Virus record (IMG/VR): IMGVR_UViG_3300031239_000001
Location: 62,001-126,000 of that record
DNA length: 64,000 nt
Direction: 5' to 3' (one strand)
Source: a virus
In this document: positions 25,674 through 63,474 of the stretch, piece after piece
How the letters are laid out: each line of letters starts with the position of its first letter
How positions within the stretch are numbered: the first letter of the stretch is position 1
Notes under the pieces: generated by a model
What the model was told of the DNA's origin: nothing
Seen by the model: the letters and a program-made list of their open reading frames with translations, nothing else
The model's database searches: none
Made by a program: the position numbers and the translations under genes

Positions 25674-25683
25674 GAGTTATAGA
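25655..25683 (+). promoter_or_regulatory. Sigma70-like promoter for the 25698-28142 rightward unit
   Basis: TTGAAA at 25655-25660 and TATAGA at 25678-25683 are 17 nt apart. Transcription would start near 25690, leaving a very short leader that still contains the AGGTGGAG ribosome site of the next gene. The -35 and spacer lie inside the opposing gene. Confidence 0.55.
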
Positions 25684-25686
25684 TTA
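25681..25686 (-). promoter_or_regulatory. Leftward TAATCT start-site box
   Basis: Read leftward, TAATCT is followed by 7 nt and the ATG at 25673. It belongs to the AATCTT family of boxes seen before seven other leftward units, with one extra base of spacing and A for the final T. It overlaps three bases of the rightward -10 box, so the two promoters probably exclude each other. Confidence 0.5.
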
Positions 25687-25697
25687 GGTGGAGCAAA

Positions 25698-25895
25698 ATG
25701 CTGAACGACGACGCGATTCCGATTGATATCGATGAAGACGTGGTGACCGAGGAGGTCTCGTACGACGACATCACCGTGCCGTACGCTTTCACCCCTCTTG
25801 AGATGGTAGGCCTCCTGATGGAAGCCGGGATGGGGAAGAGCGTCGAAAATTTCCTCAAAGTTTGGGATGGACCTAAGCTCCAGGGGATGGTATAA
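25698..25895 (+). CDS. Small acidic hypothetical protein
   Basis: The 65-residue product has an acidic start (DDAIPIDIDEDVVTEEVSYDD). The ribosome site AGGTGGAG lies 7 nt before the ATG. Its stop overlaps the next start (TAATG). Function unknown. Confidence 0.6.
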   Translation: MLNDDAIPIDIDEDVVTEEVSYDDITVPYAFTPLEMVGLLMEAGMGKSVENFLKVWDGPKLQGMV

Positions 25896-26344
25896 TGCCC
25901 TGCTCACCACTTATGCACTCGCGTTGGTTTCTTTATCAAAACACTCTTTTGAAGGGCCCCGAGAAAAACTGGTGCCCACATTGCGACCGGCCTTCTTTCT
26001 CGTTTTGGCTGTCTCAGGTGCACGAAAAAGCGGACAATGCGGACGACACCAATGCCTACTGGATGAGGGTGTTCAATCAAATCGTGAAACACGGCAAGGA
26101 AGACACCGAATACTGGGTGCCCTACAAGGCAGCTCCCGTCAGGCGCCAAGGCCTCATATCTTATGGATTCAAGGAAGTTGGGGATGGTAAGTTCGAGGTC
26201 TCGTTCGGTAAAGACCCGTCTGAAATCTCAATATTGGATTGCCTGAGACAAGAACAGTACCTCTGGGAACCAGACCAGCGCCGTCTTATTCAAAAATTGA
26301 AAGAGGAAAGGTACGAAAGGAATCGACCGAAGAAACAGGATTAA
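25895..26344 (+). CDS. Hypothetical protein with CxxC motif
   Basis: The 149-residue protein contains CPHCDRPSF near residue 27 and a basic C terminus (KEERYERNRPKKQD). The Trp/Tyr-rich middle suggests a globular domain. It is coupled to the small acidic gene upstream. No family is recognised. Confidence 0.65.
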   Translation: MPCSPLMHSRWFLYQNTLLKGPEKNWCPHCDRPSFSFWLSQVHEKADNADDTNAYWMRVFNQIVKHGKEDTEYWVPYKAAPVRRQGLISYGFKEVGDGKFEVSFGKDPSEISILDCLRQEQYLWEPDQRRLIQKLKEERYERNRPKKQD

Positions 26345-26572
26345 TTTGGGCGTGGTGCAAGACGACCGGCCGGCCTACCTTGCACTTTTGGACGACTGCG
26401 TATTTTGGACAAACCAGGCCTCGGTTTGGGGAGGATGAAGGGGTACGCAGCGGCGCCCGCTATTTTACGCCTACGGGCAATCTATACACTGGACTGTGTA
26501 GAACACATTCACAAGACCTGTGCCATGGTGGTACCGGGGTCTATCAGAGTAACGCAACAAAAGGAGTATACA
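26345..26572 (+). other. 228-bp gap without a credible gene
   Basis: This is the longest non-coding stretch of the window. A small hairpin AGCGG-CGC-CCGCT at 26449-26461 is followed by ATTTT and could be a weak terminator for the upstream pair. TATACA near 26483 and TATTTT near 26401 might be -10 boxes, but neither has a well-spaced -35. The gap ends with the AAAGGAG ribosome site of the first lipoprotein. No tRNA cloverleaf is seen. Confidence 0.5.
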
Positions 26573-27307
26573 ATGAGACGAGTATTGATTGGATTAGTAT
26601 TGGGCGCGGCGCTTGCCGCATGCGGCGGCACGCGACAGGGGGTCGATGTCCCTGTGTCTGACCCGGGCCTTGTGGACGTGAGCCAGGTAAAGCTGCTCGC
26701 GAACGAGCACGACATCGTCAACGATGCGAACTCGTTTGGGTTCTTGGAGTCTTTCGACAGTTTCAACGCAATTGGCCCCGCTGGCAGCGGGGCTCCCGAG
26801 GCGAGCATCAGGGGATCTGGCTCGTTTCGCTACGTGCAGGGCACCGTGTCGGGTGCGAGCGCGTGCACGTCCGGTGGGTCATGCTGGATCATCAGCACCG
26901 TCGGGTCGGCTACGGCCCCATTCGTGGTGTGCCAGGCCGGCGCCGGGAGCGGCCGCGACCTCAAGCTCCGACCAGCGGTGGGCGTCGAGGCCAACAACGT
27001 TGGCTCTCTCTGGCCGGCGGCGTGGTCAAACGGAGGCGCCCAGTGGACTGGGAATACTTACTCGGGGAATTCGGGCAATGACCCGGCGACCTGGAACGCC
27101 ACGTTTAACAACATGGCGTGCGTGTGGTCGGACACCAACCAGACCGTCACTCCGACGCTGGTCTATGCGGCTTCGTTCGATTCCACGTTCGATTTCACGA
27201 GCCACATCCCGCTCCTGTGGGTCGAGATCCAGTTTACGTCGTCGCGGGGCATTTTCCCTCGCAAATACCGGCAGGTCATGCCCATGACGTGGTCGTCCTC
27301 GTTCTGA
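26573..27307 (+). CDS. Secreted lipoprotein, first of a paralogous pair
   Basis: The 244-residue protein has a lipoprotein signal: MRR, a hydrophobic VLIGLVLGAALAA and lipobox AAC at about residue 17, so the mature protein would be lipid-anchored in the envelope. ATG 26573 has AAAGGAG 8 nt upstream. The mature part is Gly/Ser/Trp-rich with several Cys. It shares an overall layout with the next gene: SLWPAAWSNGGAQWT matches SWLFPATWDNHGTQWT, and both end in a YRxVxPM segment. No enzyme motif is seen. It sits beside the fibre genes, so blocking of the phage receptor against superinfection is a reasonable guess. Confidence 0.75.
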   Translation: MRRVLIGLVLGAALAACGGTRQGVDVPVSDPGLVDVSQVKLLANEHDIVNDANSFGFLESFDSFNAIGPAGSGAPEASIRGSGSFRYVQGTVSGASACTSGGSCWIISTVGSATAPFVVCQAGAGSGRDLKLRPAVGVEANNVGSLWPAAWSNGGAQWTGNTYSGNSGNDPATWNATFNNMACVWSDTNQTVTPTLVYAASFDSTFDFTSHIPLLWVEIQFTSSRGIFPRKYRQVMPMTWSSSF

Positions 27308-27320
27308 GATGGAGAAGAGC

Positions 27321-28142
27321 ATGAAGAAGATCATCATTTTTGTGGCGCTATTGGCGGCATGCGGTGGAACCCCAAGGCCGCAGGACCTAGCCCTCGTTGA
27401 GACGGGACCGCACCAGGCTCCAGCCGAAATCTCGGTGGCGCAAGAAAAAATCGTGGCGTGTCAGTCTTACGTGCATACATCCGACGCCGGCAACGCTGGG
27501 TTTGTCGAGTTCAAGCAGGGAGGCGGAGCTGGATCATTGGTTGGAGTGGGCGTAGGGAGTTTGCCGTACTGGCGATTCGATTCCCGCGCCTCGACGTTCG
27601 TCCCAGTTAACGCATTCGCACAGATGTGCGACGAAAATCACCGAGGCGATCCCAATCGCGACTACGCCACGTGCGACTGGGTGCTTGGACTGAGCCACAC
27701 GGCAGCGCAGACCTCGGCAGCATCAGGGCCATTGCTAGTGTGCAATGGATTGGCACTGCTCAAAACCTCGTGGTCCTCGGCAGATGCCATCGAATTCGTC
27801 GGTGGCAACAATGGTCAGTCGTGGCTGTTCCCGGCAACTTGGGATAACCACGGAACACAGTGGACCACCAAAACCTGGATTCTCGACCACGACACTGCCA
27901 ACCCCAACCCCGGAGAGTGTCACTGGGATTTCGATCCTAGCAATCCGGTGCGTATCGACAGTGTCGAAATGCTCACGTTCGAGCCCAACGCGACCGCGCA
28001 GACGCAGCTACCCGCAATTGGGTTCGGCACTAACTGGCTATCAATCGATGTGAATTATGTCAGTCAGGGGGTAGCCTACGAATACCGGGTAGTCCAGCCG
28101 ATGCATTACGATACTCCTGGGCCAGCGCACAGCTGCCCGTAA
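27321..28142 (+). CDS. Secreted lipoprotein, second of a paralogous pair
   Basis: The 273-residue protein has the signal KKIIIFVALLAAC with lipobox LAAC at about residue 13. ATG 27321 with GGAGAAGAG upstream is preferred over the ATG 12 nt earlier. Homology to the upstream lipoprotein is visible in WLFPATWDNHGTQWT and YRVVQPM. The two genes are 13 nt apart and would be co-transcribed. The stop is directly next to the stop of the opposing fibre gene (TAATTA). Role unknown; receptor masking is proposed by position only. Confidence 0.75.
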   Translation: MKKIIIFVALLAACGGTPRPQDLALVETGPHQAPAEISVAQEKIVACQSYVHTSDAGNAGFVEFKQGGGAGSLVGVGVGSLPYWRFDSRASTFVPVNAFAQMCDENHRGDPNRDYATCDWVLGLSHTAAQTSAASGPLLVCNGLALLKTSWSSADAIEFVGGNNGQSWLFPATWDNHGTQWTTKTWILDHDTANPNPGECHWDFDPSNPVRIDSVEMLTFEPNATAQTQLPAIGFGTNWLSIDVNYVSQGVAYEYRVVQPMHYDTPGPAHSCP

Positions 28143-29669
28143 TTAAATCCAAGTACCAATAAAACTAGAAGGCACCAAATAGACGGCCGTGTCCAGGTCT
28201 AATTTCCTGGATGCGGCCGTCGTTCCATTTGTAACGGAACACCATGGGAAGACAGGGGCAAAGGCTCCCATGCTGAAGCTTACCGGAGTTTCCCCATCAA
28301 TTGCACCAAACATGGTTCCCGAGCCCGTAGTCCAGACCTCGGCAATATGGAAATTAGTGTCAATGGCGATGGCCGAGGCCACTCCAGAGCCTCCCGAGTA
28401 GAGCCTAAAGTTCGAAGTCGAGGCTGCCCCATTGATGCCAATCCCGACAGTCGCTCCAGAACCCTGGACATAGCCCATAAGCACCTTGGTTTGAGCGTCG
28501 ACACCAGACGGCACACGGAAAACGAATAGGGCGTAAGAGGTCCCCGAATTGGGGTCCGGAGCCCATGATCCTACGAATGTTTCGGGATTACCGGAAGCAG
28601 CGATGGCAGCCGAGCTGGAGGCCGTCCCTGAGGTGTCGAGGCGGGCTAGCCCCGTACCAGTGACTCTGGTTAGAGTCCCATTGCTTCCCAGGTCCCTCGT
28701 CCAGACCGACGCCAGGTCTCCAGGGAGGGCCGCCATTGAGTCGTAGAGCGTTTCTGGGGGCTTGGTCAAGGAAAGCAGTGCCCGAGCCCTACGCGCAGCG
28801 TACAGCGCAATCGAGTCGGTCTTGAGCATGATGCCAGCGTTGAAGGGCTGGACGTCCAGACCGATGGTTAGGCCGAGATTGCCACGAGCCGTGGCTGCGT
28901 TGGCTACGTCGCTTAGGTTGTTGGCAGCCAGCAGGGCGCCCGCAGAAGACCCGAAGAGCACGAAGGTGATGGGGTCCACCCCAAGAACAATCGAGGTATT
29001 GGTATTGACGTATGACCGCTGGCCGTTTACGGTCCCTGTTTCGATATAGGTGACAGCTCCCACAAGGTCGGACCCGGAAGCAGCGTCGGAGCTTCGGGCG
29101 GGTGGGCCAGAAGAAGCAACGACGTAAATCCCATTAGTGGTCGGGTCCGCCTGGTTTTTGATAAGCAGACGATCGCCGGTCAGAAGAGTCGCTCCGTCCA
29201 CTACAGAGCCGTTTTGGAAGTCGGTGGCGATATTGCCTGGGCCGGTAGTGGCAGCGAAGCAGGGCGATTTCCACTCTGAGCTGGACCCACCGCCTCCGCC
29301 GGAGGCATTGATGATGGGGTTCGTAGAGGTTCCGCCGAGGATGATATTGTTGCCGGCGATGATACTGTCGACCCCTCCGCCCGGGGTCCCCACCACTTGT
29401 TCTTCCGCGTTGAAGAGGGCCCCTCCGCCGTCGAAAGCAGACAGGTCTCCGAATACGTTGTTGGAGTTGTAGCCCGGTTCGTCAATTCGGCACCGGAAAG
29501 ACGTGCCGTTGAGGATATCTGTGACCTGAACGTTCCGCGATATGACGCCCGTCTTGGAAATATTCCCTATCTGCCCGATGATCACCCCTAACGTGGAGGA
29601 GCAGGTCAGCACGCCGCTGGACGAAGCAGCGCTGACCGAGATAGAAACTCGCGCCGCTACGATGGACAT
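28143..29669 (-). CDS. Tail fibre / receptor-binding candidate
   Basis: The 508-residue protein has an N-terminal domain (1-95) shared with the gene at 25368, a Gly/Ser linker (SGGGGGSSSE), a fibre module with GDRLLIKNQADPTTNGIYVV near 163-185 that is common in phage fibres, a shaft-like Ala/Gly stretch (AANNLSDVANAATARGNLGL), and a C-terminal beta domain reminiscent of LamG/concanavalin folds (FVGSWAPDPNSG to AIDGETPVSF). It is last in the unit 32454-28143. The C-terminal domain is the probable host-contact part; this is inferred from the general layout of fibres. Confidence 0.75.
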   Translation of the reverse strand: MSIVAARVSISVSAASSSGVLTCSSTLGVIIGQIGNISKTGVISRNVQVTDILNGTSFRCRIDEPGYNSNNVFGDLSAFDGGGALFNAEEQVVGTPGGGVDSIIAGNNIILGGTSTNPIINASGGGGGSSSEWKSPCFAATTGPGNIATDFQNGSVVDGATLLTGDRLLIKNQADPTTNGIYVVASSGPPARSSDAASGSDLVGAVTYIETGTVNGQRSYVNTNTSIVLGVDPITFVLFGSSAGALLAANNLSDVANAATARGNLGLTIGLDVQPFNAGIMLKTDSIALYAARRARALLSLTKPPETLYDSMAALPGDLASVWTRDLGSNGTLTRVTGTGLARLDTSGTASSSAAIAASGNPETFVGSWAPDPNSGTSYALFVFRVPSGVDAQTKVLMGYVQGSGATVGIGINGAASTSNFRLYSGGSGVASAIAIDTNFHIAEVWTTGSGTMFGAIDGETPVSFSMGAFAPVFPWCSVTNGTTAASRKLDLDTAVYLVPSSFIGTWI

Positions 29670-30217
29670 TAGGTCACCGGTTGTTCGAGAAACAATTTCG
29701 CGGTCGTGTCGTTACGTTCGTCAGAAGCGTCTGCTCGGTGACAGGCGGACGAGGCCACATTCCATTGGTGGGATTTGAGTGCTGGTGCCAGATGTTGAGT
29801 TTTGATGAGATTCCCGATACCGCACTGGAAGACCCAATCCAAGGTCCCCAGCTGCGGACCCTCAGGCCATGTATCAAAGTCAGGGAAGTAGTGTTGGATC
29901 TGCTTCCCGAATTCAGCGACACGGGAAAAGAAGAGGTTTTCGATTGCCTGAATCGTCAGCCGAACGTTGGTGAATTGGGCATAGTACGAAGCTCTGAACC
30001 CTACGCCACATTTTGAGACGGTCTGGTAGGCAGCGATTACTTCCGTAGAGGGAGCCGCAGAACCGTCCTTGCGCACCCAATCCAGGGCCAGGCATGATTC
30101 TACAGTGGGAAAGTAGTTCCCGATTCCGCCTGTGACAAAGCCCTTGTTGTCCTTGTAGAGCCAACTCTTGACCCCCTCGTGGACAGAGATGATTTGATAG
30201 GCCCGGAAGTTATTCAT
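29669..30217 (-). CDS. T4-type lysozyme (GH24-like)
   Basis: The 182-residue protein resembles T4 lysozyme at its N terminus: HEGVKSWLYKDNKGFVTGGIG corresponds to the Glu-Asp-Thr catalytic region (T4 E11, D20, T26) with Glu in HEG, Asp in KDNKG and Thr in FVTGGIG. It would cut peptidoglycan. Because it lies between two fibre genes and overlaps both by TAATG, it could be a virion-borne lysozyme, or the endolysin expressed late with the structural genes. No signal peptide and no holin gene next to it are visible. Confidence 0.75.
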   Translation of the reverse strand: MNNFRAYQIISVHEGVKSWLYKDNKGFVTGGIGNYFPTVESCLALDWVRKDGSAAPSTEVIAAYQTVSKCGVGFRASYYAQFTNVRLTIQAIENLFFSRVAEFGKQIQHYFPDFDTWPEGPQLGTLDWVFQCGIGNLIKTQHLAPALKSHQWNVASSACHRADASDERNDTTAKLFLEQPVT

Positions 30218-32454
30218 TAGAGGCCGCCTGTGTATGCTGGAGAAGTTGCCAAAACGGTTTCCGTACCGTCAAACCATTGAACAACCAAGCTGTCTGTAGT
30301 GGACCGTCCGGGCGTTCCAGATGTCAAAGAAGCAAACGTTATGGAGGTGACACCGGGACTGATGGGATTAGCGGTAGAGATTTTGTAGTTGAAGCCGGTA
30401 CGGACGGTTCCGGCTGTTATTCTGGTGGCCATGTTGTTGCAACACTTCGCCGAGTCGTCATTGTCTGTCGTCCTGATCAAAATCCAAGGAGTGCCCGCGC
30501 TCCCTACCTGTGTGACGACATAGATTCCGTTATCTCCGCCGGCTGTGGCCGCTGTTACCAAGATGCGGTCGTTGAGGGCAACCGCTACGCTGTCTACCGA
30601 GAGGGCTCCGTTAGCGTTTGCCGTTAATGTGCGACCTACAGCGGGACCGCCGCTGGCAGTGTACGCTGGCAGCGCGGCAGCGGTACTTAGGCGACATGGC
30701 GCGCGCCAGAACAAGGTAGGCTTGAGGTACATCCTGGTGTATGCCAGACTTCCTCCCGATACGTACCCACCAGCGAAAGGCTGTGCCAGTGAAGTGTTGA
30801 TCCGGAGCGCCCCGGACGCTTCAACAGAAAACAGTTCATCGTCGTTGGTACCTGTAACCCCAAGACTTACTTCACGTTGAGCGGCAACATACAAAACCCC
30901 TGCGGCTGAATAAGGTCCACTTGCGCCCAGACCATTGGCCTTCATGGAAATTCCCAACGTACCGAAGGCTGCATAAGAGGACCTCCCCCGAATAATGGTG
31001 CAGCAACCGGCGCTATCGGTCGTGGTCTGCAGGTTAATGGGGAATGAGGTTCCCGATGTAATTAGGATTTGGTTGTCTCCCCCAACAGAACCTCTACCAA
31101 TGACGATGTCACCACCGGAAGGAATATTAACCGTATTCCCGAAATCAAGGTTGTGAGAGATACCGCCACAAGTCGCCGTGTAGAAACCTGTAGGAGACAT
31201 TGCTACGGTCGGAACAACGGGGATGCTGGCAGGGACCCAAGAACCTGAGGCCATGCTGGTGACTCTGACTGCTCCTGTGGCTCCCGTAGTGGCCTGGCGA
31301 AACGAGCCGCCTACCGGGAACGGCTGGTCGCGCACATATACGTTCGAGCCGCTGCGGTAAGCGATTACAAAGCGCTGGCCAGGTGTGGCCGAACCGCCAA
31401 GAGTCTGCAGAGTTCCTTTTTGTGCAGTCAGGGCGTTTACGCCAGCGACGGTTCTAGTGGTAGACCTATCGATATCAACGTAAAGGCACTGTCCGTCAGA
31501 GAGATTGGTCAGCCCCGCACTGTCTGTCAATTGGTCATTGATCTCGTTGAGGGTGGCGTTGCTGTTGTCAAAAACAAAACGAAGCCCTTGCCAATGGAGG
31601 TTGGTACCTGTCCACTCGAACGACTCCGAGGTGTTAACAAACACATTTCCGTTGCCAGTCATTCTGATGTTGCGGTCAGCGGCGAGGGAGTACCAATACT
31701 GTCCTCCGCCAATTTCCCACAACTTGGTCATGATGGCGTTCATCCAGTCTTTAGTGGAGAACAGTGAGCGGTCTCCGGCCACAGTAGCTAGAGAGGCGGA
31801 AGACTCGTCACGCCCGCCCGGCCATCCGAACGGATTCACAGACTGGGGGTTACTGCCACCCGAGCCGAGACGAAAGAGCAGGTTGCGAGCGTCTGTAATG
31901 GAAAGGATTGCGTTGGCCCCGTCTGTGGTGACCTTGGCCAAAGGACAGATGCCCGGAGTACCGCTGAACTCGGTCGTGCTGACGACAATTACGTAGTCGA
32001 GGGTCCTCGCCAGAGGGACGGTATAAGGCGTCTCCAGGCCCGTGTCTGGGTTGTAGAATTGAACAACGTCTGCGGTGCTGTCGTCTGCGGTTCGAGTGAA
32101 GTCGATGCCTACGAAATTGACAGCGTTGGGAGCGAAGCCCCCAGACATTCTGGGGTTGACGGTCGACAGGATCTCGTTGGCTCGGTCCTCGGGTACGTGC
32201 AGGTACGAACCAGCCTCCGAGGCCTCATAATGCAGGATGAGCCCGCCGGCCGTCTGGAGAACCAGCGAGGTCGCCGCGTTCCCTATGACGCCAGTGGTGA
32301 CCAGATTGAAGCCGCTAATGATAGTTGGGACTTTATTGGTAGCGATGAGGCCTAGAACGTCGAAGTCGTTCGCAACACTGGATTCCAGGGCCCGCAGGTG
32401 TTGCAGGTCCACGCGCTGCTGACTCAACCAGTTCTGCTGCCTCTGAATTGCCAT
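30217..32454 (-). CDS. Large tail-fibre or baseplate-fibre protein
   Basis: The 745-residue protein starts in a helical segment (QRQQNWLSQQRVDLQHLRAL), then has beta-rich domains and, near residue 628, a second copy of the fibre module (LNDRILVTAATAGGDNGIYVV) found in the 28143 gene. The tail end SLVVQWFDGTETVLATSPAY is beta-rich. First gene of its unit, with AATCTT 5 nt before the ATG. It is probably a fibre or connector that carries the downstream receptor-binding protein; the exact place in the virion is unknown. Confidence 0.7.
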   Translation of the reverse strand: MAIQRQQNWLSQQRVDLQHLRALESSVANDFDVLGLIATNKVPTIISGFNLVTTGVIGNAATSLVLQTAGGLILHYEASEAGSYLHVPEDRANEILSTVNPRMSGGFAPNAVNFVGIDFTRTADDSTADVVQFYNPDTGLETPYTVPLARTLDYVIVVSTTEFSGTPGICPLAKVTTDGANAILSITDARNLLFRLGSGGSNPQSVNPFGWPGGRDESSASLATVAGDRSLFSTKDWMNAIMTKLWEIGGGQYWYSLAADRNIRMTGNGNVFVNTSESFEWTGTNLHWQGLRFVFDNSNATLNEINDQLTDSAGLTNLSDGQCLYVDIDRSTTRTVAGVNALTAQKGTLQTLGGSATPGQRFVIAYRSGSNVYVRDQPFPVGGSFRQATTGATGAVRVTSMASGSWVPASIPVVPTVAMSPTGFYTATCGGISHNLDFGNTVNIPSGGDIVIGRGSVGGDNQILITSGTSFPINLQTTTDSAGCCTIIRGRSSYAAFGTLGISMKANGLGASGPYSAAGVLYVAAQREVSLGVTGTNDDELFSVEASGALRINTSLAQPFAGGYVSGGSLAYTRMYLKPTLFWRAPCRLSTAAALPAYTASGGPAVGRTLTANANGALSVDSVAVALNDRILVTAATAGGDNGIYVVTQVGSAGTPWILIRTTDNDDSAKCCNNMATRITAGTVRTGFNYKISTANPISPGVTSITFASLTSGTPGRSTTDSLVVQWFDGTETVLATSPAYTGGL

Positions 32455-32476
32455 GTCCCAAGATTCGTGCTAGACT
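32448..32476 (+). promoter_or_regulatory. Sigma70-like promoter for the single gene 32537
   Basis: TTGCCA at 32448-32453 and TAGACT at 32471-32476 are 17 nt apart. It overlaps the start codon of the leftward fibre gene. The predicted leader is about 55 nt and holds an AAGGAGAG ribosome site, so this unit is not leaderless. Confidence 0.5.
32460..32465 (-). promoter_or_regulatory. Leftward AATCTT start-site box
   Basis: Read leftward, GAATCTT is followed by exactly 5 nt (GGGAC) and ATG 32454. No Shine-Dalgarno is present. No -35-like sequence stands out. Confidence 0.65.
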
Positions 32477-32536
32477 GCTCCCTTGGAGTCGTGGCCCAGG
32501 TGGCGCGACAAGAAAACCCAGTAGAAGGAGAGAAAC

Positions 32537-33780: not shown

Positions 33781-33785
33781 GACCG

Positions 33786-33791
33786 AAGATT
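33786..33791 (-). promoter_or_regulatory. Leftward AATCTT start-site box next to a hairpin
   Basis: Leftward TAATCTT is followed by 5 nt (CGGTC) and ATG 33780. The TAA stop of the upstream gene is part of the box. A perfect hairpin AGCCCT-CAC-AGGGCT (33792-33806) lies directly upstream and could end the upstream transcript or mark the promoter. Confidence 0.65.
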
Positions 33792-39130: not shown

Positions 39131-39136
39131 AAGATT
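39131..39136 (-). promoter_or_regulatory. Leftward AATCTT start-site box
   Basis: Leftward GAATCTT, then 5 nt (GCTTC), then GTG 39125. It forms the left half of a divergent cassette with the rightward promoter that begins 6 nt away. Confidence 0.65.
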
Positions 39137-52022: not shown

Positions 52023-52028
52023 AAGATT
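52023..52028 (-). promoter_or_regulatory. Leftward AATCTT start-site box
   Basis: Leftward TAATCTT is followed by CGGTG and the GTG at 52017 (or directly, after 2 nt, GTG 52020). It abuts the base of a 14-bp hairpin. Confidence 0.65.
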
Positions 52029-52029
52029 A

Positions 52030-52086
52030 GAGCCCAGGTCGAGGGCGTCTACGGTTCGGTGACCTGGGCTCCTCGACCTGGGCTTA
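52030..52086 (-). repeat. Competing inverted repeats in the 72-bp gap between two leftward genes
   Basis: AGCCCAGGTCGAGG (52031-52044) pairs perfectly over 14 bp with CCTCGACCTGGGCT at 52071-52084, and its first 10-11 bases can pair instead with GACCTGGGCTC at 52061-52071. Only one pairing can form at a time. It could terminate the 53525-52090 transcript, protect RNA ends, or act as a switch ahead of the giant baseplate gene. There is no U-tract after it. Confidence 0.6.
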
Positions 52087-52089
52087 AGG

Positions 52090-53525: not shown

Positions 53526-53533
53526 GATGCTCC

Positions 53534-54034: not shown

Positions 54035-54039
54035 ATTTG

Positions 54040-54045
54040 AAGACT
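54040..54045 (-). promoter_or_regulatory. Leftward AGTCTT start-site box
   Basis: Leftward AGTCTT, then 5 nt (CAAAT), then ATG 54034; one mismatch to the common AATCTT. Confidence 0.5.
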
Positions 54046-54060
54046 ATCACATCTTTCTTC

Positions 54061-54088: not shown

Positions 54089-54095
54089 TGGGTTC

Positions 54096-54308: not shown

Positions 54309-54344
54309 CCCAGAATCCCCACCCGCAAACGATTGGAGCAAGCC

Positions 54345-54515: not shown

Positions 54516-54523
54516 GAACTGAT

Positions 54524-54763: not shown

Positions 54764-54765
54764 AC

Positions 54766-57360
54766 TTAAGTCTGGATGTTGTAAGACACAGGGACCGGCT
54801 GCTTCACTCCGACCAATGATATCTGGGCTGATATCGACGCCGTAACTCCGGACTTGGTAACCTTTACCCCGTCTACAGAGCTAAACGCTGGCTCTTCCGC
54901 AAACATTCTCTTGACAGCTGCTAGAGCTTCGTTCACATCGAGGTCTGCTGTCGACATACCCACCCTGAATGGAATACCAAAGTTTGGGTGCTGAAGAAGT
55001 GTTCCCCTCGTGACTGAGAGCGCGATGCGGATGTTCTGAATGATATTTGTTAAACCTGCCGACAACCGCGTGTCACCGTCTGGGGTGATAATGAGGTCGT
55101 TTGTGTCTGTCAAGAGTAAGTCTACTCCACCTGCAGCCGTCAGTGGGTCGAACACATCGATAGTAGGGATTGACTTCGTCACGAAGTCTGTGTCGGCCGG
55201 CTGGCGGTCAGAAGGAATGTAAATCAGGCTTTGGCTATTGACAGTGTCAGGTAGAAATGCTGACAGCTTCCCGTTAGAGGCGAGCGTGTAGCTTCCCATT
55301 GTCGGGTCACCGTCTACTCCAATCGTGATATAGCTGTCAGTAACTTTGATAGCGTTGATTCGGCGCTGCGTTCTAAGGGTCGTGTTAGAGCCGATGAAGA
55401 CCTGTTGGCCGATGTAAAGGTTGTTCTTCGTGTCGTCCGTATAAGGGATGACGACTTCGTTGCCTGAGCCGTTGGCCAGGAGGTAGATATCAAACCCTAC
55501 CTCATCGATGTAGGGTTGCCTTAGGCCATTGAGAGTGGCTATCTCCATCCACCTGTTGGCGTCGTTGAGGTATTTCTGGGCCAGGCTTTCGAGGGTAGAG
55601 CCATAGGGGAATGGCACTGCGTATTTGCTGGTGGGTATTTGGAATGCGACACCTGACCTTCTGGCTAGGGTCGACATCAAAACCATGTTGTTGTCGAGGC
55701 TGGTGGGCTCAGAGTCGCCTGTGGCTGCGAAAGCGTCTAGAGCTGCTGCTGCCTCATTGAGAGCGTAAAGAGCTTCCCAGTCTGATTCGGTGGGTGTTGC
55801 TTTTACCTGCTTGATGTTGGTTTGATAGGTAGTTTGATAAGTGCTGTTGCCTGCACCAAGAGCGAAGGCCAGGGCGTCTGCGGCTTGTCTTACGTTGTTT
55901 CGGTTGGCCTCATAGTTGACGCGCTTGAAGTTGCTGACCCTGATTCTTTCAGACTCGATTTGCTGGGTGACTCTAGGCGGGAGCTTTAAAGAGCTGATAT
56001 CGGCCTGGAGCATCAGCTGGACCGATTGAGAGTTCTGGCTGAAAGGCTGAAAGGCCGGATGCGTAGACTGCTGGCGCTTGAGGTCTGGGCCCATACGACT
56101 GGAGACGATATCATTCGTCTCGTTGGCGATAGAGCCGCCAGCCTGGAGCTGGCGCTTGACAGTATCATTAGTCTGGTTAGCTGCGTTCCTACGGCCTGTG
56201 CTGGTGCCCTGGAGCTGGACCCAGGAAGCATACGCTTCTTTCTGGATAGCTGCAGGCATCTCGGCCAGCGAGAGGGCCAGGCCTTGAGCGTCCTTTGCGG
56301 CAAGAGCTATTTCACGCAGAGGTTCGAACACGAGTCTATCGATGTCTCCAATGATAGCTGGAGCGATCCTCGAAGCCGACTGCAGGACCTGCCTTACGGC
56401 CTGAATGGTGTTGAGTACGCGTGCAAGCTTGTTGGGGTCCCTTCGGAGAGCTGTACCGAGGACTGTGTTGAAGGACGAGGTGTCGAGGTTGATACGGCGC
56501 CAGGCTTTCAGGCTGAGGTCGTACGTGGTCTCAAGAGGAGAGATGGCGGACCTGGTGGCCGAGAAGCTTACGGGCGTTACCAGGTAAATCGATTGGTCCT
56601 TCCACATGCAGAAGGCTAGGCGGAGGTCTCTTCCGGCTTTCGTCTTCTTGACGGCGTAATAGCTTTCGAGGAAGCGCTGGAGCTTTTGGAATTGATACCA
56701 ACCCGTGGTCTTAGCCACAATGCTTGGGTCGCCTACGCGGGCGTTGTCGACGTTCGAGTTGTTTGGGTCGAAGTCAGCGTTAGGATGAATGTTAGGGTTA
56801 GTAAGGGCTGTATTAGAAAAGGCTGAGAAAGCTGTAGCTACATCCTGCTTGACGATATTCAATTGCTGGACAGTCCCTCCGGCAATGGTCTCGAAAAGAG
56901 AGAAGCCAAGCTGTTGAGCAGCTGAGCCACGTCCGGGGAGAACGCCCGTTGAACCACGGATTGAGAGCAGCTTAAAGGGAGCCCCGTTGTGCTCCTCGAT
57001 GATGCCACCCTGGGTGGCAGAAACGGTGATAGCGATTTGGTCGCTGACAGACAGAGACTCAGGGGACACAGGCAGGGTGAATTGATAGCCCGGTTCGATC
57101 TGGTGGCTGGTGGTTCCGTCTGCAGCTGCTACTGCTCGCACTATCAATAGCTGGTAGGGCCTGAGCTGGTTCCAACGTGCGCTGTCGATATCATTCTGCA
57201 CCCAAAAGGCTTCAGCTGCTGTCAGAGGGCTTTTGTTCTCTGAGGCAAGCTGGAGGAGCAGGTCGGAGTCTACAACGGCGTCCAGGCCAGACACAGGCCT
57301 TGCCGAGCTAACGGAGGCTGTACCGGCCTGAGAAATCTGGTTGAAGAAGCTATCGCTCAC
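54766..57360 (-). CDS. Baseplate protein with LysM-like and gp25-like domains
   Basis: The 864-residue protein has a long N-terminal region without a recognised fold. Near 580-630 lies a LysM-like segment (YGSTLESLAQKYLNDANRWM, EIATLNGL), and near 770-864 a T4 gp25/P2 W-like domain (DTRLSAGLTNIIQNIRIALS, LLQHPNFGIP). gp25 is a baseplate wedge component joined to the sheath start; LysM-containing proteins usually form a separate hub or spacer protein. Having both in one chain suggests a wedge-hub fusion. It is alone in its unit, with AATCTT 5 nt before GTG 57360. Confidence 0.75.
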   Translation of the reverse strand: MSDSFFNQISQAGTASVSSARPVSGLDAVVDSDLLLQLASENKSPLTAAEAFWVQNDIDSARWNQLRPYQLLIVRAVAAADGTTSHQIEPGYQFTLPVSPESLSVSDQIAITVSATQGGIIEEHNGAPFKLLSIRGSTGVLPGRGSAAQQLGFSLFETIAGGTVQQLNIVKQDVATAFSAFSNTALTNPNIHPNADFDPNNSNVDNARVGDPSIVAKTTGWYQFQKLQRFLESYYAVKKTKAGRDLRLAFCMWKDQSIYLVTPVSFSATRSAISPLETTYDLSLKAWRRINLDTSSFNTVLGTALRRDPNKLARVLNTIQAVRQVLQSASRIAPAIIGDIDRLVFEPLREIALAAKDAQGLALSLAEMPAAIQKEAYASWVQLQGTSTGRRNAANQTNDTVKRQLQAGGSIANETNDIVSSRMGPDLKRQQSTHPAFQPFSQNSQSVQLMLQADISSLKLPPRVTQQIESERIRVSNFKRVNYEANRNNVRQAADALAFALGAGNSTYQTTYQTNIKQVKATPTESDWEALYALNEAAAALDAFAATGDSEPTSLDNNMVLMSTLARRSGVAFQIPTSKYAVPFPYGSTLESLAQKYLNDANRWMEIATLNGLRQPYIDEVGFDIYLLANGSGNEVVIPYTDDTKNNLYIGQQVFIGSNTTLRTQRRINAIKVTDSYITIGVDGDPTMGSYTLASNGKLSAFLPDTVNSQSLIYIPSDRQPADTDFVTKSIPTIDVFDPLTAAGGVDLLLTDTNDLIITPDGDTRLSAGLTNIIQNIRIALSVTRGTLLQHPNFGIPFRVGMSTADLDVNEALAAVKRMFAEEPAFSSVDGVKVTKSGVTASISAQISLVGVKQPVPVSYNIQT

Positions 57361-57365
57361 GATTG

Positions 57366-57371
57366 AAGATT
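57366..57371 (-). promoter_or_regulatory. Leftward AATCTT start-site box
   Basis: Leftward CAATCTT, 5 nt (CAATC), GTG 57360. It lies in the 20-nt gap after the exported-protein gene. Confidence 0.65.
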
Positions 57372-57380
57372 GCTAGCGGG

Positions 57381-58049
57381 TTATTGGGTCGGGTACGGGG
57401 TGCAAGTACGCGGGTCGACCATGGGGCGAGACGGCTGAAAATACGACCACGAAAAGTCACACGCCCATTGCAGGGTGTCTCCGGCGGAGCCGTGCAAGGT
57501 AATCCCGAACACGGAAGCGGCCACCGATGCCCAATCTGCGCTTGAGCGCTCCCCTGGAACCCCCGCCCCTATATCAATTGAAAAATCTGCCCCTGAAAGC
57601 TGGGGAGGCACTGCCGACATAATCGTCAACTCACTAAGTTTCTTCATCGTTCCGTGGTAGCCGGTCCCTGGGGTACAGAAAACGTTGTTCACCTTGAATA
57701 GGGCACGCTTCGTAATGAATGCCGGGTCCTTGCCTTCCGAAGATGCATGGCAGTTCACGACAACGTCAAGCGGGTCTCCTACTGCTGGCCTCGATGTTTG
57801 AATCCACACGGGTGGGTCAATGAACGCATTCCATAGTATGGGACATGACTGCACGGAGTAATAAAAGCCCCCCTTCGTCTGTGCTCCTATAGTGACGATC
57901 CCCCCAGCCGGAATACCGGACGATGCAGAAAAAATGTCGCTGGGGGTGCTCATTGATGTCCGGCACTCTTGCGGAGTTACGGCGGCCTGGGCGAATACAA
58001 CCCCGGGAACTAGTAACGACAGAAATAGGATCGCGATCCTGGTGTTCAT
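57381..58049 (-). CDS. Exported Cys-rich protein at the end of the spike operon
   Basis: The 222-residue protein has a classical signal peptide (MNTRIAILFLSLLVPGVVFA, then QAA). The mature part has six Cys in exported context, so disulphides are likely, and a beta-rich composition. ATG 58049 has TAGGAGA 6 nt upstream; an earlier ATG at 58082 would overlap the spike gene and put charged residues before the signal. It lies just downstream of the tail-spike gene. Function unknown; an envelope protein interfering with adsorption is possible. Confidence 0.7.
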   Translation of the reverse strand: MNTRIAILFLSLLVPGVVFAQAAVTPQECRTSMSTPSDIFSASSGIPAGGIVTIGAQTKGGFYYSVQSCPILWNAFIDPPVWIQTSRPAVGDPLDVVVNCHASSEGKDPAFITKRALFKVNNVFCTPGTGYHGTMKKLSELTIMSAVPPQLSGADFSIDIGAGVPGERSSADWASVAASVFGITLHGSAGDTLQWACDFSWSYFQPSRPMVDPRTCTPYPTQ

Positions 58050-58063
58050 ATGAATTCTCCTAG

Positions 58064-60145
58064 TTATGGGTTTCCACTGCAAACAACTTCAGTTATGCAC
58101 TGTTGTATCGTGATCACCTCGGAAGTCTGGGATTGAAGATGCAGAGAGATGAACTGCTGCGCGGTGGCCGAGTTCCATGTCGCCATGGTCGCGATCGTAA
58201 AGTCAATCGCCTTGGGACTAAACCCGGTCGTCGCCGCGTTGTGTGTCAGTTCGGAAGTTGCCACTCCCGCGCAGCTAGCGCCAAGTGGGCCACGTACGGT
58301 GAATTCAACGACTAGCCTCCCTTGGTCAGCCGCAGCCGTTGGGACGCTCGCATTCGTGAGTGTGGCAACGGTGGTGTCTGACGTTGTCCCGGTTGTTCCT
58401 ATTTTTACAAACCACGATCTCGTGCTCGTGACCCCCGTTGCCGTCTTCGACATCGTCACTGTCCAGCGGAACACCGTCCCAATCTGGAATCCCTGAGGCG
58501 GAACCCAGAGGAGCGAGCCTGTGATCAGCGTGAGCGTCGCCGCTGGGATTGCCTGGTCGGCTACACTGACCGATCGCGCGCCGTCGCGCCACCCACCGTT
58601 GGGGGTCCAGTCAAAAGCGGAATTCAACTCCGCCACAGGAACGGGAGCCCCATTCCCGAGCTGGTAAAGGTCCCAGTAGTTAGGCCCAGCCTGAGCTAGG
58701 AGGCGCGCGCCTGCGTTGGTAGCGCCCATGTTGCAAACCCCGCCGATTCCCGGGTCCCCTCCACGGAAGGTATTATTCCTTGAGGCCAGGGTCGCGGACA
58801 CGATCGAACCGTTCAGGCGTACCCCAGGTTTTCTGACACGGTTGATTGCTCCGTCATTGGTGGCATTGCCGCCATTGATATAAAGCTGGATGGTGTCAAT
58901 CGAATCGCTGTTGGAGAATTCTAGAGCTGCCGGCCCCCAAGTCGTGCCATGAGACAACTGGCCACCGATGAAAGTTCCACAGCAGGTATTGGCAGTAGAG
59001 CCTCCATTGAAACGAACACAGTAAGCATTGCCCGGGACCGCTTGAACGATATTAGAGCCGCTTACTGTAGTAGGAGTATGGACCACATCGTCGGCATTGA
59101 CTGTACATCCAGTAAGAGTAGTCGTTCCTCCACCTCCGGTGTAGTTAACCAAGGTAGGCATACCAGCGGTGGTCATTACCCAGATATACCCTGACGCCGG
59201 TAGCGTGTTTGCGGCGACGGTTAGCGACTGCCCAGACGCAGTAAGAACCACTGCCGAAGATGTGGTGATTGCGGTGGTTACAGGTGCCGGGGTTGCGGGA
59301 TTGTCGAGCTGTCGACAGAACAACTCGGTCAAAAGGAATCGTGTCGTGTCTTTGGCCTCAGTTGGTGTTGTGCTGATTCCGAGACGAATCGAACCCGCTA
59401 GAGAGTCACAAACGAAAACACTGTCAAGCCTCATTCCGGCGGCAGACGCTACCACCAGGCCATGGAGAGCCTGGTTTTGATCTCCATTGCGGCAGTCCAG
59501 AAAGATGTCACGTAAAGACGGCGCCTTTATCGTATTGATTCCAGTGGAGTTGAAAGCTAGCATCGCTCCGAAAGCGGTTCCCCCGTCAGAAGAAGTGCCC
59601 CACCAGGCCAAGCGGGTGCCGCCGAGCCGCGTGTAGTCTCCGACGTCGGCAGAATAACAGCTGCCAATCCCTCTGAGGCTAACCGGGCTTGTGAATATGG
59701 CACTGATTGGCCAACCATAAGAGTTGGTGGCCGACTGTCCGAACTCCACTACGGCCCCAGGAAAGGCGGCTCCGTTTAGGGTCGAAGTCATCAGCGTAAT
59801 GGCCGCAGTATTGTCTGTGCCGAAGCTAACACCACAAGCTCCGGAAGTAGTGGACCCAGCAGTCGCTGACAACGTCACTACGCTCGACGAAGTAAAGGCA
59901 GAAATGGTGGTTGTTAGTTGTGCCCCAGAAGCGCCAGCACGGGCCACCGTGACTCTCTTGCCGACATCCGTGGACTTGAATGGCGCGCTAGTCGCACAAG
60001 TCAACGTCGCTGATCCGGAGGTCATCGCACCATCGAACACTGTAATCAGATCGCCGACGAAGCCGAAGTCGTCTTGTGCGCTATAAAAAATCTCTCTGGT
60101 CAGTCCAGTCGAAAAGGGTCCAGCTTGGGGAGGGGAGAACGGCAT
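58064..60145 (-). CDS. Tail spike with pectate-lyase-like beta helix
   Basis: The 693-residue protein begins with DDFGFVGD, and near residue 110 has GTDNTAAITLMTSTLNGA followed by GAVVEFG. In many tail spikes these pieces form one compact block (GAVGDGxTDDTAAIQ) that opens a right-handed beta helix; here about 70 residues are inserted between them. The Ser/Thr/Asn/Gly-rich body to about residue 520 fits a beta helix, and the rest may be a trimer tip. Such spikes often cut or bind surface polysaccharide. Catalytic residues cannot be named. Confidence 0.7.
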   Translation of the reverse strand: MPFSPPQAGPFSTGLTREIFYSAQDDFGFVGDLITVFDGAMTSGSATLTCATSAPFKSTDVGKRVTVARAGASGAQLTTTISAFTSSSVVTLSATAGSTTSGACGVSFGTDNTAAITLMTSTLNGAAFPGAVVEFGQSATNSYGWPISAIFTSPVSLRGIGSCYSADVGDYTRLGGTRLAWWGTSSDGGTAFGAMLAFNSTGINTIKAPSLRDIFLDCRNGDQNQALHGLVVASAAGMRLDSVFVCDSLAGSIRLGISTTPTEAKDTTRFLLTELFCRQLDNPATPAPVTTAITTSSAVVLTASGQSLTVAANTLPASGYIWVMTTAGMPTLVNYTGGGGTTTLTGCTVNADDVVHTPTTVSGSNIVQAVPGNAYCVRFNGGSTANTCCGTFIGGQLSHGTTWGPAALEFSNSDSIDTIQLYINGGNATNDGAINRVRKPGVRLNGSIVSATLASRNNTFRGGDPGIGGVCNMGATNAGARLLAQAGPNYWDLYQLGNGAPVPVAELNSAFDWTPNGGWRDGARSVSVADQAIPAATLTLITGSLLWVPPQGFQIGTVFRWTVTMSKTATGVTSTRSWFVKIGTTGTTSDTTVATLTNASVPTAAADQGRLVVEFTVRGPLGASCAGVATSELTHNAATTGFSPKAIDFTIATMATWNSATAQQFISLHLQSQTSEVITIQQCITEVVCSGNP

Positions 60146-60663
60146 TACGTGATCTCCTCAATACGTGCGTTCCCCGTGGCGGATGTCCAGATTCCGTTTA
60201 TCTGGCCCGTGAAACACGGCTGGATGGCCTCATAAACCTGGTTAGGCAGAATAAGGATTGCTGAAGTCGCCGTCGCGGCAGTGCCCCTGCCAAGCCGAAG
60301 TGGAAATGCGGAGTCGTTCAGGATGACGAAAGACCGGCGTGCGGTGTTGCTGGCCAACAGCTGTACAGAGGTTAGCGAGGCAGCCACGGTAGATACAGTG
60401 GGATTCGTGGCAGACGCAGCAGCGGCCACTACCGAAGCGACGTTGATGACAGAGGCGTTACCAAGCCCAGCAGCAAGACCGTAAATAGATTCATTGGTGA
60501 CCTGCATAGGTTGTCCTAAGGGGGGAGCCGTACCAGTTGATTGAGTCACCCCCGAAGGGCCGATGATGCAGCCTCCCTGAGCAGAGAACCAAATCGTCCC
60601 CGTCCCCGAGAAGATCAGGGTGGGGGTAGTATCATTGAGTGAGAAACTCGCTGAGGTTGCCAT
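60145..60663 (-). CDS. Small structural protein of the spike operon
   Basis: The 172-residue protein is Ala/Ser/Thr-rich and beta-like; its C-terminal half (LLASNTARRSFVILNDSAFP, then LRLGRG) resembles small virion decoration or adaptor domains. GAAGGGG lies 9 nt before the ATG, and its stop overlaps the spike start (TAATG). It may be a spike adaptor or chaperone. Confidence 0.6.
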   Translation of the reverse strand: MATSASFSLNDTTPTLIFSGTGTIWFSAQGGCIIGPSGVTQSTGTAPPLGQPMQVTNESIYGLAAGLGNASVINVASVVAAAASATNPTVSTVAASLTSVQLLASNTARRSFVILNDSAFPLRLGRGTAATATSAILILPNQVYEAIQPCFTGQINGIWTSATGNARIEEIT

Positions 60664-60685
60664 TATCTAGTCCCCTTCATTATCA

Positions 60686-63463
60686 TTAATTGCACCAGTG
60701 GGAAACGATGGTGACAAGGAACACTACGACACCGGCCGTGGTCACGGTCCCCATGTTTTTTGCACAAATAGCAAAGTGTTCGCCGGGCTGCACGAAGATA
60801 TCCGGAGTCAAAATCTGGCCGCATTGGTTGGTAGGTATGAAACCTATCGCAGAGCCAGTAGGGATAGCGTGTAAGGACAAAGGCTTCCTTCGCGGTGCTT
60901 TTGTGTTAGCACTTTCGGCAGTAGCCAAAGAAGTGGCTGTGTGTCCCCAGGCGGCGGAGTAGTTGTATAGTACAGGGCCGCCAGTCAAAGCGGTGGTCAC
61001 GATTGCTTCTATCTTGATAGAGTCGATAGCCAACGTTCTACCCGTTACTGTGCTGGAGCCGGCTGGGTTCGTGAAATCACAAACGATACCGTCAGTACCT
61101 ACAGTCAAGGTCGGTAGGCAGGCAAACTGTCCGCCCAAGCCGGTGCCCAAAGCTGCGGTGGTGTTGGTCATTGCGGCGCCGGCACCTGCCGCCTGGTTGT
61201 TGGCCAAGTTGGCCGTACTCCCCTGCGTCTGCCCACCAGCTCCTTGTGAACCCGTATTGCCATTCGAGCCCTGAGCCTCAACCCACGGCTGGTTTAGGTT
61301 CTGCCCAGCCATGTTAATGCCGTACTCGATGACCTTGAAGCTTAAAGCACCAGAAGCAGCTGAGCCGCCGATAGCGTGTCTGAAAGAGAATGGACACGAA
61401 CCTGGACGGAACGGACGACCACTGGCGGCTGGCGAGTTAATTCGCCCCATCGACGTGTAGCCGTTACCGTCGCGCATGTCGAGCCAAAACACACACACGT
61501 TCGGGTTGATATAAATCGATCCGTCGTACTCCACACCAGAGGTGGGAACAAAGTTGGCGCCGCCGAACACAGTTGCAAAAGCAGATGTCAGGGTTTCTGT
61601 GCCGGCGTTGTTGGCGACCCCGAACATGCCAGAAGAATTCAGACGGAAGTACGCCCCGTCGGTAGGAGCGTAAGGTGTCGAGGTGGGCCGCTGGAAGCAA
61701 CCGAAGTCGATGGTGGTATTAGTGGCGTTCACCGTGCCCGTGAACATGAACTTAAAGTAGATGATCTGGGTACCCGAGGACCAGCAAGGGAAGAACCGCC
61801 GAGTAGAAAATGCAGCGCCGGTATTCGCAGTCGTGATCGATCCACCGTTGGTGGTCACTCCCGTACCTGGATAGGTCACCGTCATCGTGGTCGTATCGAC
61901 CGTATGTTTACCTGTGTTTTGGGCGGTATAGCAGAAATTCTCCTGGTCGAACACGTTGTCAATGCTGACACGTGCGCTGAAGTCTTCGCTGGTTTCAGGA
62001 GAGAGAATCCACGGGAAGCCATTCGAGCTTCCGGCATCCGACTCAGTAAAGTTAGTAACCCTTAAAGCACCAGACTTGCCAGTATTGAGAGGGTTCGTTG
62101 TGCCCGGTGTGTAGGCGGGGTAGAATAGCGTGGCTGCCGCCTGATCGAGCCCACCAGACTGTCCAGCTGTAGTAGAGCCTTGAGCTACTGCGCTTCCTCC
62201 ACCTCCGCCAGCCGTAACGTTCACCCTCAGCGCTCCGGTGGTGTCTAACGAAAGCGGAGAGGTCTGGCCGCTGGTGTATGTAGGGCTGGCGGTGGCCACA
62301 GCTCCCTGCATAAGGGGACCCGACTGGCCAGAAGTGGTAGAGCCCTGGGCTAGAGGCAGCAGGGCCAACGTGGCCTGCGTAGCTATGGTGCCTATGGTGC
62401 CGATGTTGGCAGTGATGGTGCCAGAGACAGGTTGAGTAACGGCACTCCCGTCTACCTTCCATGCTACAGTGTTAGGCGTGTTGCCGGGTTGTACAGTCCA
62501 GGTGCCGGACTGAGAGGCCGGGATTGCCGACTGGTCAGACGCAATGGCTACGGCCAGCGAGGAGGCCATGACCTTCTGGCCGAGAGTGGCGGGGAGCTTC
62601 CCCGACATGGTGCTGACGGTAGCGTCCAGTGCCAATGAGCCTGAGGTGCCAATGTTGGCAGTGACAGTACCGGAGATGGTCGGGGTCCCGCTGATCGACA
62701 CTGAGCCAGAGATCGGCTGGGTTACCGCACTACCGTCAACCTTCCAGGCTACGGTGTTGGCCGTGTTGCCGGGCTGGACTGTCCAGGTACCGGACTGGGT
62801 TGCAGCTACGGTGCCCGATACAGGAACGGTACCCGAAATGGCGACTGTACCGCTGACGGGCTGTGTGGTGGCCGAGGCGTCTACCCTGAGAGCGCCAGCG
62901 GTCGTCAATGATAGCGGGGAGGTCTGGGCGGTGGTATAGGTGGGCGAACCGGTGGTGACTGCGCCTAGGGAAAGTCCGCCTTTTTGTCCGCTTGTCGTGG
63001 AGCCCTGAGAGACCTGAAGCCCAGTAACGGAGGCGTCTAGGGCGAGGGAGCCCGAGGTTCCAATGTTTGCCGTGACCGTGCCTGTGACCGCCACGGAGCC
63101 CGTAATGGTAGTCGAGGTGAGGGAGACGGGGACCGTGTTGTTGGGGCTGATTGCCACCACGAGAGCTTTGTCGGTGGCGACAGCTGCTGTACTGGCGGCT
63201 TTGACAGTGGCAACGTTGGTGCCGTCAGTCAGCTTTGTCTGCTGCGTGCCACCGGTTAGGGTGGCGTCCAGGGCCAGGGTGCCGGCGGTCCCGATGTTAG
63301 CCGTAATCGTGCCAGAGACAGCCACAGGCGTCCCCGAGGCGATACCCTGAATGGTTATGACATCGGTCGAAGCGCTGCCGGCCGTCCCCAGGGCGGGCTG
63401 CTTGGCTGCGGTGGCTGCGCCCGTGGGGAGTACGCTCTGCTGCACCTGGGAAATTGTAAGCAC
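60686..63463 (-). CDS. Large repetitive tail-fibre protein
   Basis: The 925-residue protein has an N-terminal half (about 1-430) made of repeats: VSGTxTANIGTxGxLALDAT and GTWTVQPGNTxNTVAWKVDG, each present two or more times, with Ser/Thr/Gly/Val composition suited to a beta-rich shaft. The C-terminal half (from WILSPETSEDFSARVSID) is globular and could be the tip. It opens the unit 63463-57381 and starts with GTG, 5 nt after AATCTT. Repeats are also visible in the DNA, for example 62430-62520 against 62710-62800. Confidence 0.75.
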   Translation of the reverse strand: MLTISQVQQSVLPTGAATAAKQPALGTAGSASTDVITIQGIASGTPVAVSGTITANIGTAGTLALDATLTGGTQQTKLTDGTNVATVKAASTAAVATDKALVVAISPNNTVPVSLTSTTITGSVAVTGTVTANIGTSGSLALDASVTGLQVSQGSTTSGQKGGLSLGAVTTGSPTYTTAQTSPLSLTTAGALRVDASATTQPVSGTVAISGTVPVSGTVAATQSGTWTVQPGNTANTVAWKVDGSAVTQPISGSVSISGTPTISGTVTANIGTSGSLALDATVSTMSGKLPATLGQKVMASSLAVAIASDQSAIPASQSGTWTVQPGNTPNTVAWKVDGSAVTQPVSGTITANIGTIGTIATQATLALLPLAQGSTTSGQSGPLMQGAVATASPTYTSGQTSPLSLDTTGALRVNVTAGGGGGSAVAQGSTTAGQSGGLDQAAATLFYPAYTPGTTNPLNTGKSGALRVTNFTESDAGSSNGFPWILSPETSEDFSARVSIDNVFDQENFCYTAQNTGKHTVDTTTMTVTYPGTGVTTNGGSITTANTGAAFSTRRFFPCWSSGTQIIYFKFMFTGTVNATNTTIDFGCFQRPTSTPYAPTDGAYFRLNSSGMFGVANNAGTETLTSAFATVFGGANFVPTSGVEYDGSIYINPNVCVFWLDMRDGNGYTSMGRINSPAASGRPFRPGSCPFSFRHAIGGSAASGALSFKVIEYGINMAGQNLNQPWVEAQGSNGNTGSQGAGGQTQGSTANLANNQAAGAGAAMTNTTAALGTGLGGQFACLPTLTVGTDGIVCDFTNPAGSSTVTGRTLAIDSIKIEAIVTTALTGGPVLYNYSAAWGHTATSLATAESANTKAPRRKPLSLHAIPTGSAIGFIPTNQCGQILTPDIFVQPGEHFAICAKNMGTVTTAGVVVFLVTIVSHWCN

Positions 63464-63468
63464 ATCCC

Positions 63469-63474
63469 AAGATT
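63469..63474 (-). promoter_or_regulatory. Leftward AATCTT start-site box
   Basis: Leftward CAATCTT, 5 nt (GGGAT), GTG 63463. The rightward -35 box begins 5 nt away, giving the second copy of the divergent cassette. Confidence 0.65.

What the first reader, a model, noticed from the sequence alone, without database searches (positions are those of the whole stretch)
25681..63474. AATCTT box exactly 5 nt before the start codon of leftward units
All eight leftward transcription units begin with the same element. AATCTT-N5-ATG/GTG precedes starts 32454, 33780, 39125, 52017, 57360 and 63463; AGTCTT-N5 precedes 54034; TAATCT-N7 precedes 25673. Leftward genes inside operons lack it and use Shine-Dalgarno or TAATG overlaps instead. 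No conserved -35 is visible. The fixed distance to the start codon suggests either a -10-like box with leaderless transcription by a modified or phage-encoded polymerase, or a new kind of translation start signal. The genes are mostly structural, so this is probably the late class.
Basis: partly seen in the sequence, partly recalled or inferred. Interest (0 to 1): 0.8.

Follow-up and report, generated by a model that had tools for sequence, protein, structure and literature searches.

The report
Phage late promoters abutting start codons
A large uncultured phage, related to Myxococcus phage Mx1, starts its late virion-gene transcripts from a short AATCTT box only 5-6 bases before the start codon, so the messages probably have no leader, and the box is most likely read by a phage-made sigma factor that has lost the part which reads the usual second promoter element.

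Summary
The box is real and is a promoter. In the 132-kb phage record holding the window, 17 of 64 leftward starts carry A[AG]TCT 6-7 nt upstream (0.19 expected); boxed starts never have a Shine-Dalgarno. AATCTT precedes the same late genes in Myxococcus phage Mx1 (15 of 86 late-strand, 0 of 164 other CDS, deposited starts) and ranks first to third among hexamers before late-gene orthologs in 5 of 6 phages fetched afterwards as a test. There it lies anywhere from 7 to about 60 nt before the start, usually with a Shine-Dalgarno between, so it is not a translation signal. No -35 is conserved. Early genes of the same phage have ordinary TTGACA-N16-TANNNT promoters with the same leaderless geometry. 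No multisubunit RNA polymerase gene was found. The phage encodes a divergent sigma-70-family factor, outside the window; over 70 complete homologs all stop after region 4.1, lacking the -35 reader. I conclude: host core polymerase plus this sigma reads AATCTT as a -10-only late promoter; in this phage transcripts begin at the start codon. The sigma-box link is inferred, not shown. It works like T4 gp55 late transcription; membership of that family is not shown.

The parts
25680..25685 (-). late -10 box AATCTA (TAATCT 25681-25686), 6 nt before ATG 25673 of a small gene similar at its N-terminus to the 28143-29669 structural protein
32460..32465 (-). late box AATCTT, N5 before ATG 32454 (745-aa structural protein with tail-fibre/decoration-like C-terminal module)
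   Evidence: box kept at the same gene in G001, G002, G004, G006, Mx1
33786..33791 (-). late box AATCTT, N5 before ATG 33780 (323 aa, no PHROG match)
39131..39136 (-). late box AATCTT, N5 before GTG 39125 (1635 aa large protein)
   Evidence: start consistent with homolog alignment
52023..52028 (-). late box AATCTT, N5 before GTG 52017 (2337 aa baseplate J-like protein)
   Evidence: phrog_6; start supported by homologs
54040..54045 (-). variant late box AGTCTT, N5 before ATG 54034 (166 aa)
57366..57371 (-). late box AATCTT, N5 before GTG 57360 (864 aa baseplate protein)
   Evidence: phrog_975
63469..63474 (-). late box AATCTT, N5 before GTG 63463 (925 aa)
18039..18066 (+). contrast class: sigma-70-type promoter TTGACA (18039-18044), N16, TATTGT (18061-18066), N6, ATG 18073; leaderless geometry with a -35
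63479..63506 (+). contrast class: TTGACG (63479-63484), N16, TATCAT (63501-63506), N7, ATG 63514; divergent from the late box at 63469

Best explanation
AATCTT is the -10 element of the late promoters of a family of large phages related to Myxococcus phage Mx1. Host core RNA polymerase, carrying a phage-encoded sigma factor (G000:50162-51250, minus strand, 362 aa, outside the window), melts DNA at this box without any -35 contact, because the sigma ends after region 4.1 and lacks the region 4.2 helix-turn-helix. Transcription starts 6-7 nt after AATCT. In this phage that base is usually the A or G of the start codon, so most late transcripts would be leaderless; in most relatives a leader with a Shine-Dalgarno follows instead. 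Early genes, and the unit that encodes the sigma, use host-type -35/-10 promoters, giving an early-to-late cascade. Shown from sequence: the box, its position, its strand and gene class, its conservation, the missing -35, the sigma gene and its conserved truncation. Inferred: that this sigma reads the box, that the start site is at the start codon, and the timing.
For: Enrichment and position. Same geometry as the six TTGACA-N16-TANNNT-N6-ATG promoters of early-strand genes. Same box before orthologous late genes in G001, G002 and Mx1, with AATCTA in G004 and AATCAT in G006, at variable distances. Mx1 with deposited starts: 15/86 late-strand CDS, 0/164 other, 1/86 for the reverse complement. 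Test on six genomes fetched afterwards: AATCTT ranks 1, 2, 1, 1 and 3 among hexamers before late orthologs in five; 0-1 cases before early orthologs. Spacing floor: outside G000 starts almost never lie closer than 7 nt to AATCT; a purine is enriched at that same place in the mostly leadered promoters of G001 and Mx1. No -35: mean information about 0.02 bit at -30..-15 from the box in five relatives, none in G000. Sigma: PHROG sigma families, TIGR02937, RpoD/SigA by profile at E 1.4e-10, matching E. coli sigma70 370-566; AlphaFold model (pLDDT 85.7) matches sigma subunits in the PDB; over 70 complete homologs end after region 4.1. No multisubunit RNA polymerase.
Against: No transcript or binding data. 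G004 has an AATCTA box but its record lacks this sigma; the record seems to stop just short of the sigma-bearing cluster, and it carries a different full-length sigma. G023 has the sigma but AATCTT is only weakly enriched there. The foldseek TM-scores are low (about 0.4), as region 2 matches better than the whole chain. The box matches three positions of the host -10 consensus, so host sigma could contribute. The T7-like polymerase search had no positive control.
Confidence: 0.82

Rival explanations
1. Host primary sigma reads the box as a -10-only promoter of leaderless genes, as in Deinococcus, helped by a phage activator or modified host polymerase; the truncated phage sigma does something else.
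For: Geometry equals the leaderless -10 (TANNNT) promoters of Deinococcus-Thermus (PMC12340547); one early-type promoter at G000:126230 uses TAATCT as the -10 of a TTGACA promoter.
Against: The box keeps a fixed C and usually a final T, is not reliably preceded by T (often C or G), stays the same in phages of 36-64% GC, is nearly absent before early orthologs, and comes with no -35.
Confidence: 0.12
2. A new translation-initiation signal at fixed distance from the start codon.
For: Fixed N5-N6 in this phage; mutually exclusive with Shine-Dalgarno.
Against: In relatives the box lies 7 to about 60 nt away, with a Shine-Dalgarno present in 113 of 166 leaders of 9 nt or more; it marks unit starts more than internal genes.
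Confidence: 0.02
3. The box is read by another phage factor: a single-subunit RNA polymerase or a second sigma not recognised here.
For: G004 has another full-length sigma; the T7-like search had no working control; G006 has a second, 45-copy start-anchored motif.
Against: No RNA polymerase found; in G000 and Mx1 TIGR02937 finds one sigma only, and the truncated sigma is present in five of the six first relatives and in Mx1.
Confidence: 0.04

Closest known systems
T4 late transcription (gp55, gp33, gp45)
   Same: Phage sigma-70-family factor without a -35 reader; late promoters are a single -10-type element with no -35 (PMC2988020; PMC7892883); host core polymerase; late virion genes
   Different: Box AATCTT instead of the T4 late octamer; no gp55 relative found by profile among PDB chains; this sigma is much longer, with a conserved N-terminal part, and keeps region 4.1; no gp33 or clamp partner found; transcripts probably leaderless
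Leaderless -10 promoters of Deinococcus-Thermus (PMC12340547)
   Same: -10 motif adjacent to the ORF at fixed short spacing, no Shine-Dalgarno
   Different: There TANNNT at cellular genes; here AATCTT of a late phage class with a phage sigma
phiKZ/AR9-type late promoters (PMC5312081)
   Same: Late class marked by a short motif near the start site without a -35
   Different: Those phages encode multisubunit polymerases; none here; motifs differ (TATG; AACA-N6-TA/G)
Myxococcus phage Mx1 (OR576727)
   Same: Related gene set, sigma (38% identical), same late box
   Different: Mostly leadered late promoters; the announcement (PMC10720576) describes no promoters

Membership tests
sigma-70 family | region 2 (core binding, -10 recognition) | tested here: met
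   profile of 58 members matches RpoD regions 2 to 4.1, E 1.4e-10; PF04542 in 12 of 58 members
sigma-70 family | region 4.2 helix-turn-helix that reads -35 | tested here: not met
   over 70 complete homologs end after region 4.1; match to TIGR02937 stops at 131 of 165
sigma-70 family | binds core polymerase and directs initiation | not testable with these tools
   needs biochemistry
T4 gp55-type late sigma | sigma without -35 reader and promoters without -35 | tested here: met
T4 gp55-type late sigma | sequence relationship to gp55 | tested here: inconclusive
   no gp55 chain at E 0.01 in the PDB profile search; no direct comparison was made
T4 gp55-type late sigma | gp33-like coactivator and phage sliding clamp | tested here: inconclusive
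   bacterial-type clamp model PF02768 absent, controls ring; T4-type clamp and gp33 not tested; the conserved gene after the sigma looks GroES-like, not gp33
phage multisubunit RNA polymerase (phiKZ/AR9 type) | encodes beta-like polymerase subunit | tested here: not met
   PF00562 absent in five phages, present in all 14 controls
leaderless -10 promoter | -10 element at fixed short distance from the start codon, no Shine-Dalgarno | tested here: met
   (in G000; minority of sites in most relatives)
leaderless -10 promoter | 5' end at the start codon | not testable with these tools
   needs 5'-end mapping

The most novel reading that the evidence does not exclude
A separate clade of phage late sigma factors that kept region 4.1 but lost region 4.2, and has a conserved N-terminal part of its own, reads a -10-only AATCTT promoter without a gp33/clamp-type partner, and in some members the late regulon has been packed so that the promoter's -10 abuts the start codon and the late mRNAs are leaderless.
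Probability: 0.45. Interest if true: 0.75.

Novelty: new variant of a known kind. Interest (0 to 1): 0.62.

Why it matters
T4 gp55 is the standard example of a sigma that works without a -35 reader, and it needs gp33 and the clamp for full activity. Here is a family of at least 100 phage contigs, with a cultured member growing on a lab strain (Mx1 on M. xanthus DK1050, PMC10720576), in which a differently truncated sigma and a conserved -10-only late promoter can be tested directly. It also gives gene finders a start signal for leaderless phage genes, and a marker of late genes in uncultured phages.

Tried and rejected
Translation signal: rejected (see rivals). Phage RNA polymerase: none found (the second without a working control). 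Region 4 supplied by another protein: PF04545 gave only weak hits below the cut-off; the gene after the sigma is conserved in most loci but looks GroES-like by eye; the ORF at G000:36252-37127 that gave a weak hit looks like a homing endonuclease. Bacterial-type sliding clamp: none. The first AlphaFold model with 6 sequences was poor; redone with 58. A dinucleotide-shuffle test of the raw pattern alone is only moderately significant (1 of 100 shuffles reached 9); strand and start position carry the weight. The absence of a Shine-Dalgarno inside leaders of 8 nt or less (0 of 60) is trivial for lack of room and is not used as evidence. Two literature queries failed on syntax and one on term length. 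No held paper that I found describes AATCTT late promoters in phages.

Full report
What the window is. The window is bases 62001-126000 of a 132,208-base virus record, G000. It is a tailed phage: rightward genes include DNA polymerase III alpha, a RecA-like protein, a DnaB-like helicase, a ribonucleotide reductase and a dUTPase (read by eye from the translations; Mx1 carries annotated genes of these kinds); leftward genes include baseplate, tail-fibre, capsid, portal and terminase proteins. I fetched the rest and called genes with a home-made caller, which is a limitation: starts are predictions.

The observation. All eight sites are present as described. Over the whole record, 17 of 64 leftward starts have A[AG]TCT ending 6-7 nt before the start codon, where chance gives 0.19; unit-first starts have it far more often than internal starts; no boxed start has a Shine-Dalgarno. 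AATCTT followed by a start at N5/N6 occurs 17 times, 16 of them opening an ORF of 70 aa or more; the reversed motif gives 2 and 1. That scan added two sites, GTG 20613 (start supported by G001 alignment) and GTG 3058. Distances are 5 or 6 nt from AATCTT, with two sites at 11. Some leftward units lack the box at the start.

A built-in yardstick. Six genes of the same phage have TTGACA exactly 28 nt before the start (0.05 expected): TTGACA-N16-TANNNT-N6-ATG. These are host-type promoters whose predicted start site is the start codon. The late box sits where their -10 sits, but has no -35. The helicase-sigma genes begin with TTGAAA-N17-TACGAT-N7-GTG at G000:52748, so the sigma could be made before the late genes.

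Relatives separate promoter from translation signal. Orthologs of the boxed genes in G001, G002, G004, G006 and Mx1 carry AATCTT, AATCTTTA, AATCTA or AATCAT upstream, but at 7 to about 60 nt and usually with a Shine-Dalgarno between. Outside G000, starts almost never lie closer than 7 nt to AATCT, as expected if the transcript begins there; a purine is enriched at that place in the mostly leadered promoters of G001 and Mx1. In the late sets of G001, G002, G004, G006 and Mx1, the -35 region carries no information; for G000.

Independent tests. With Mx1's deposited starts, 15 of 86 plus-strand (late) CDS have AATCTT within 60 nt and none of 164 minus-strand CDS do. In six further phages fetched only after the motif was fixed, AATCTT ranked 1, 2, 1, 1 and 3 among hexamers before late orthologs in five and was nearly absent before early orthologs; the sixth, very AT-rich, showed only weak enrichment and a TAATCT-containing motif.

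The likely reader. No multisubunit RNA polymerase was found. G000:50162-51250 encodes a 362-aa protein matching sigma models. Its family (58-sequence profile) matches RpoD from region 2 to region 4.1, ending at the FGID residues of region 4.1; an AlphaFold model of good confidence finds sigma subunits as its PDB matches. Over 70 complete homologs from viral contigs end at that point. A sigma without region 4.2 would not be expected to need a -35, which fits the promoters. This is correlation of parts, not proof of function.

Known relatives. T4 gp55 works on -10-only late promoters without a sigma-4 equivalent of its own (PMC2988020). The present system works like it, but sequence membership is not shown and no gp33 or clamp was found. 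Leaderless -10 promoters are known in Deinococcus-Thermus (PMC12340547). The Mx1 genome announcement (PMC10720576) does not discuss promoters. The combination therefore looks like a new variant of a known kind.

Limits. No transcript ends, no binding data, predicted gene starts in all but Mx1, records of uncertain completeness, timing inferred from gene function, and an unknown host for G000.

Noticed in passing
G006 (loci L051-L059), about 45 copies: A second start-anchored motif, CGTTCGCTATAG, mostly 7-8 nt before start codons on both strands, almost invariant over 12 bases with no -35; its reader is unknown.
   Followed up: partly
L006:15243-16001 (+): A phage protein matching tRNA-His guanylyltransferase (Thg1), E 4e-29, with a homolog in G001.
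   Followed up: no
window 3236-5032 and 5004-7409 (+): DNA polymerase III alpha is split into two overlapping ORFs in this phage and in G006, but is one ORF in G001; the end of the first ORF looks like extra sequence, possibly an intein or insertion.
   Followed up: no
L007:16252-17127 (+): A homing-endonuclease-like ORF (N-terminal helix-turn-helix, by eye) lies in the late region next to the capsid unit.
   Followed up: no
L008:9851-10162 (-); L008:15157-16995 (+): A roughly 100-aa protein that looks GroES-like by eye follows the sigma gene and is conserved with it in most loci; the phage also encodes GroEL.
   Followed up: partly
G004:116863-117381 (+): This relative carries a different sigma factor that matches TIGR02937 almost to its end, above the curated cut-off, and has further start-anchored words such as GTTAGA.
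   Followed up: no
window 52029-52080 (-): Complementary arms CCCAGGTC / GACCTGGG lie directly upstream of the late box at 52023, perhaps a terminator of the upstream unit (visible).
   Followed up: no
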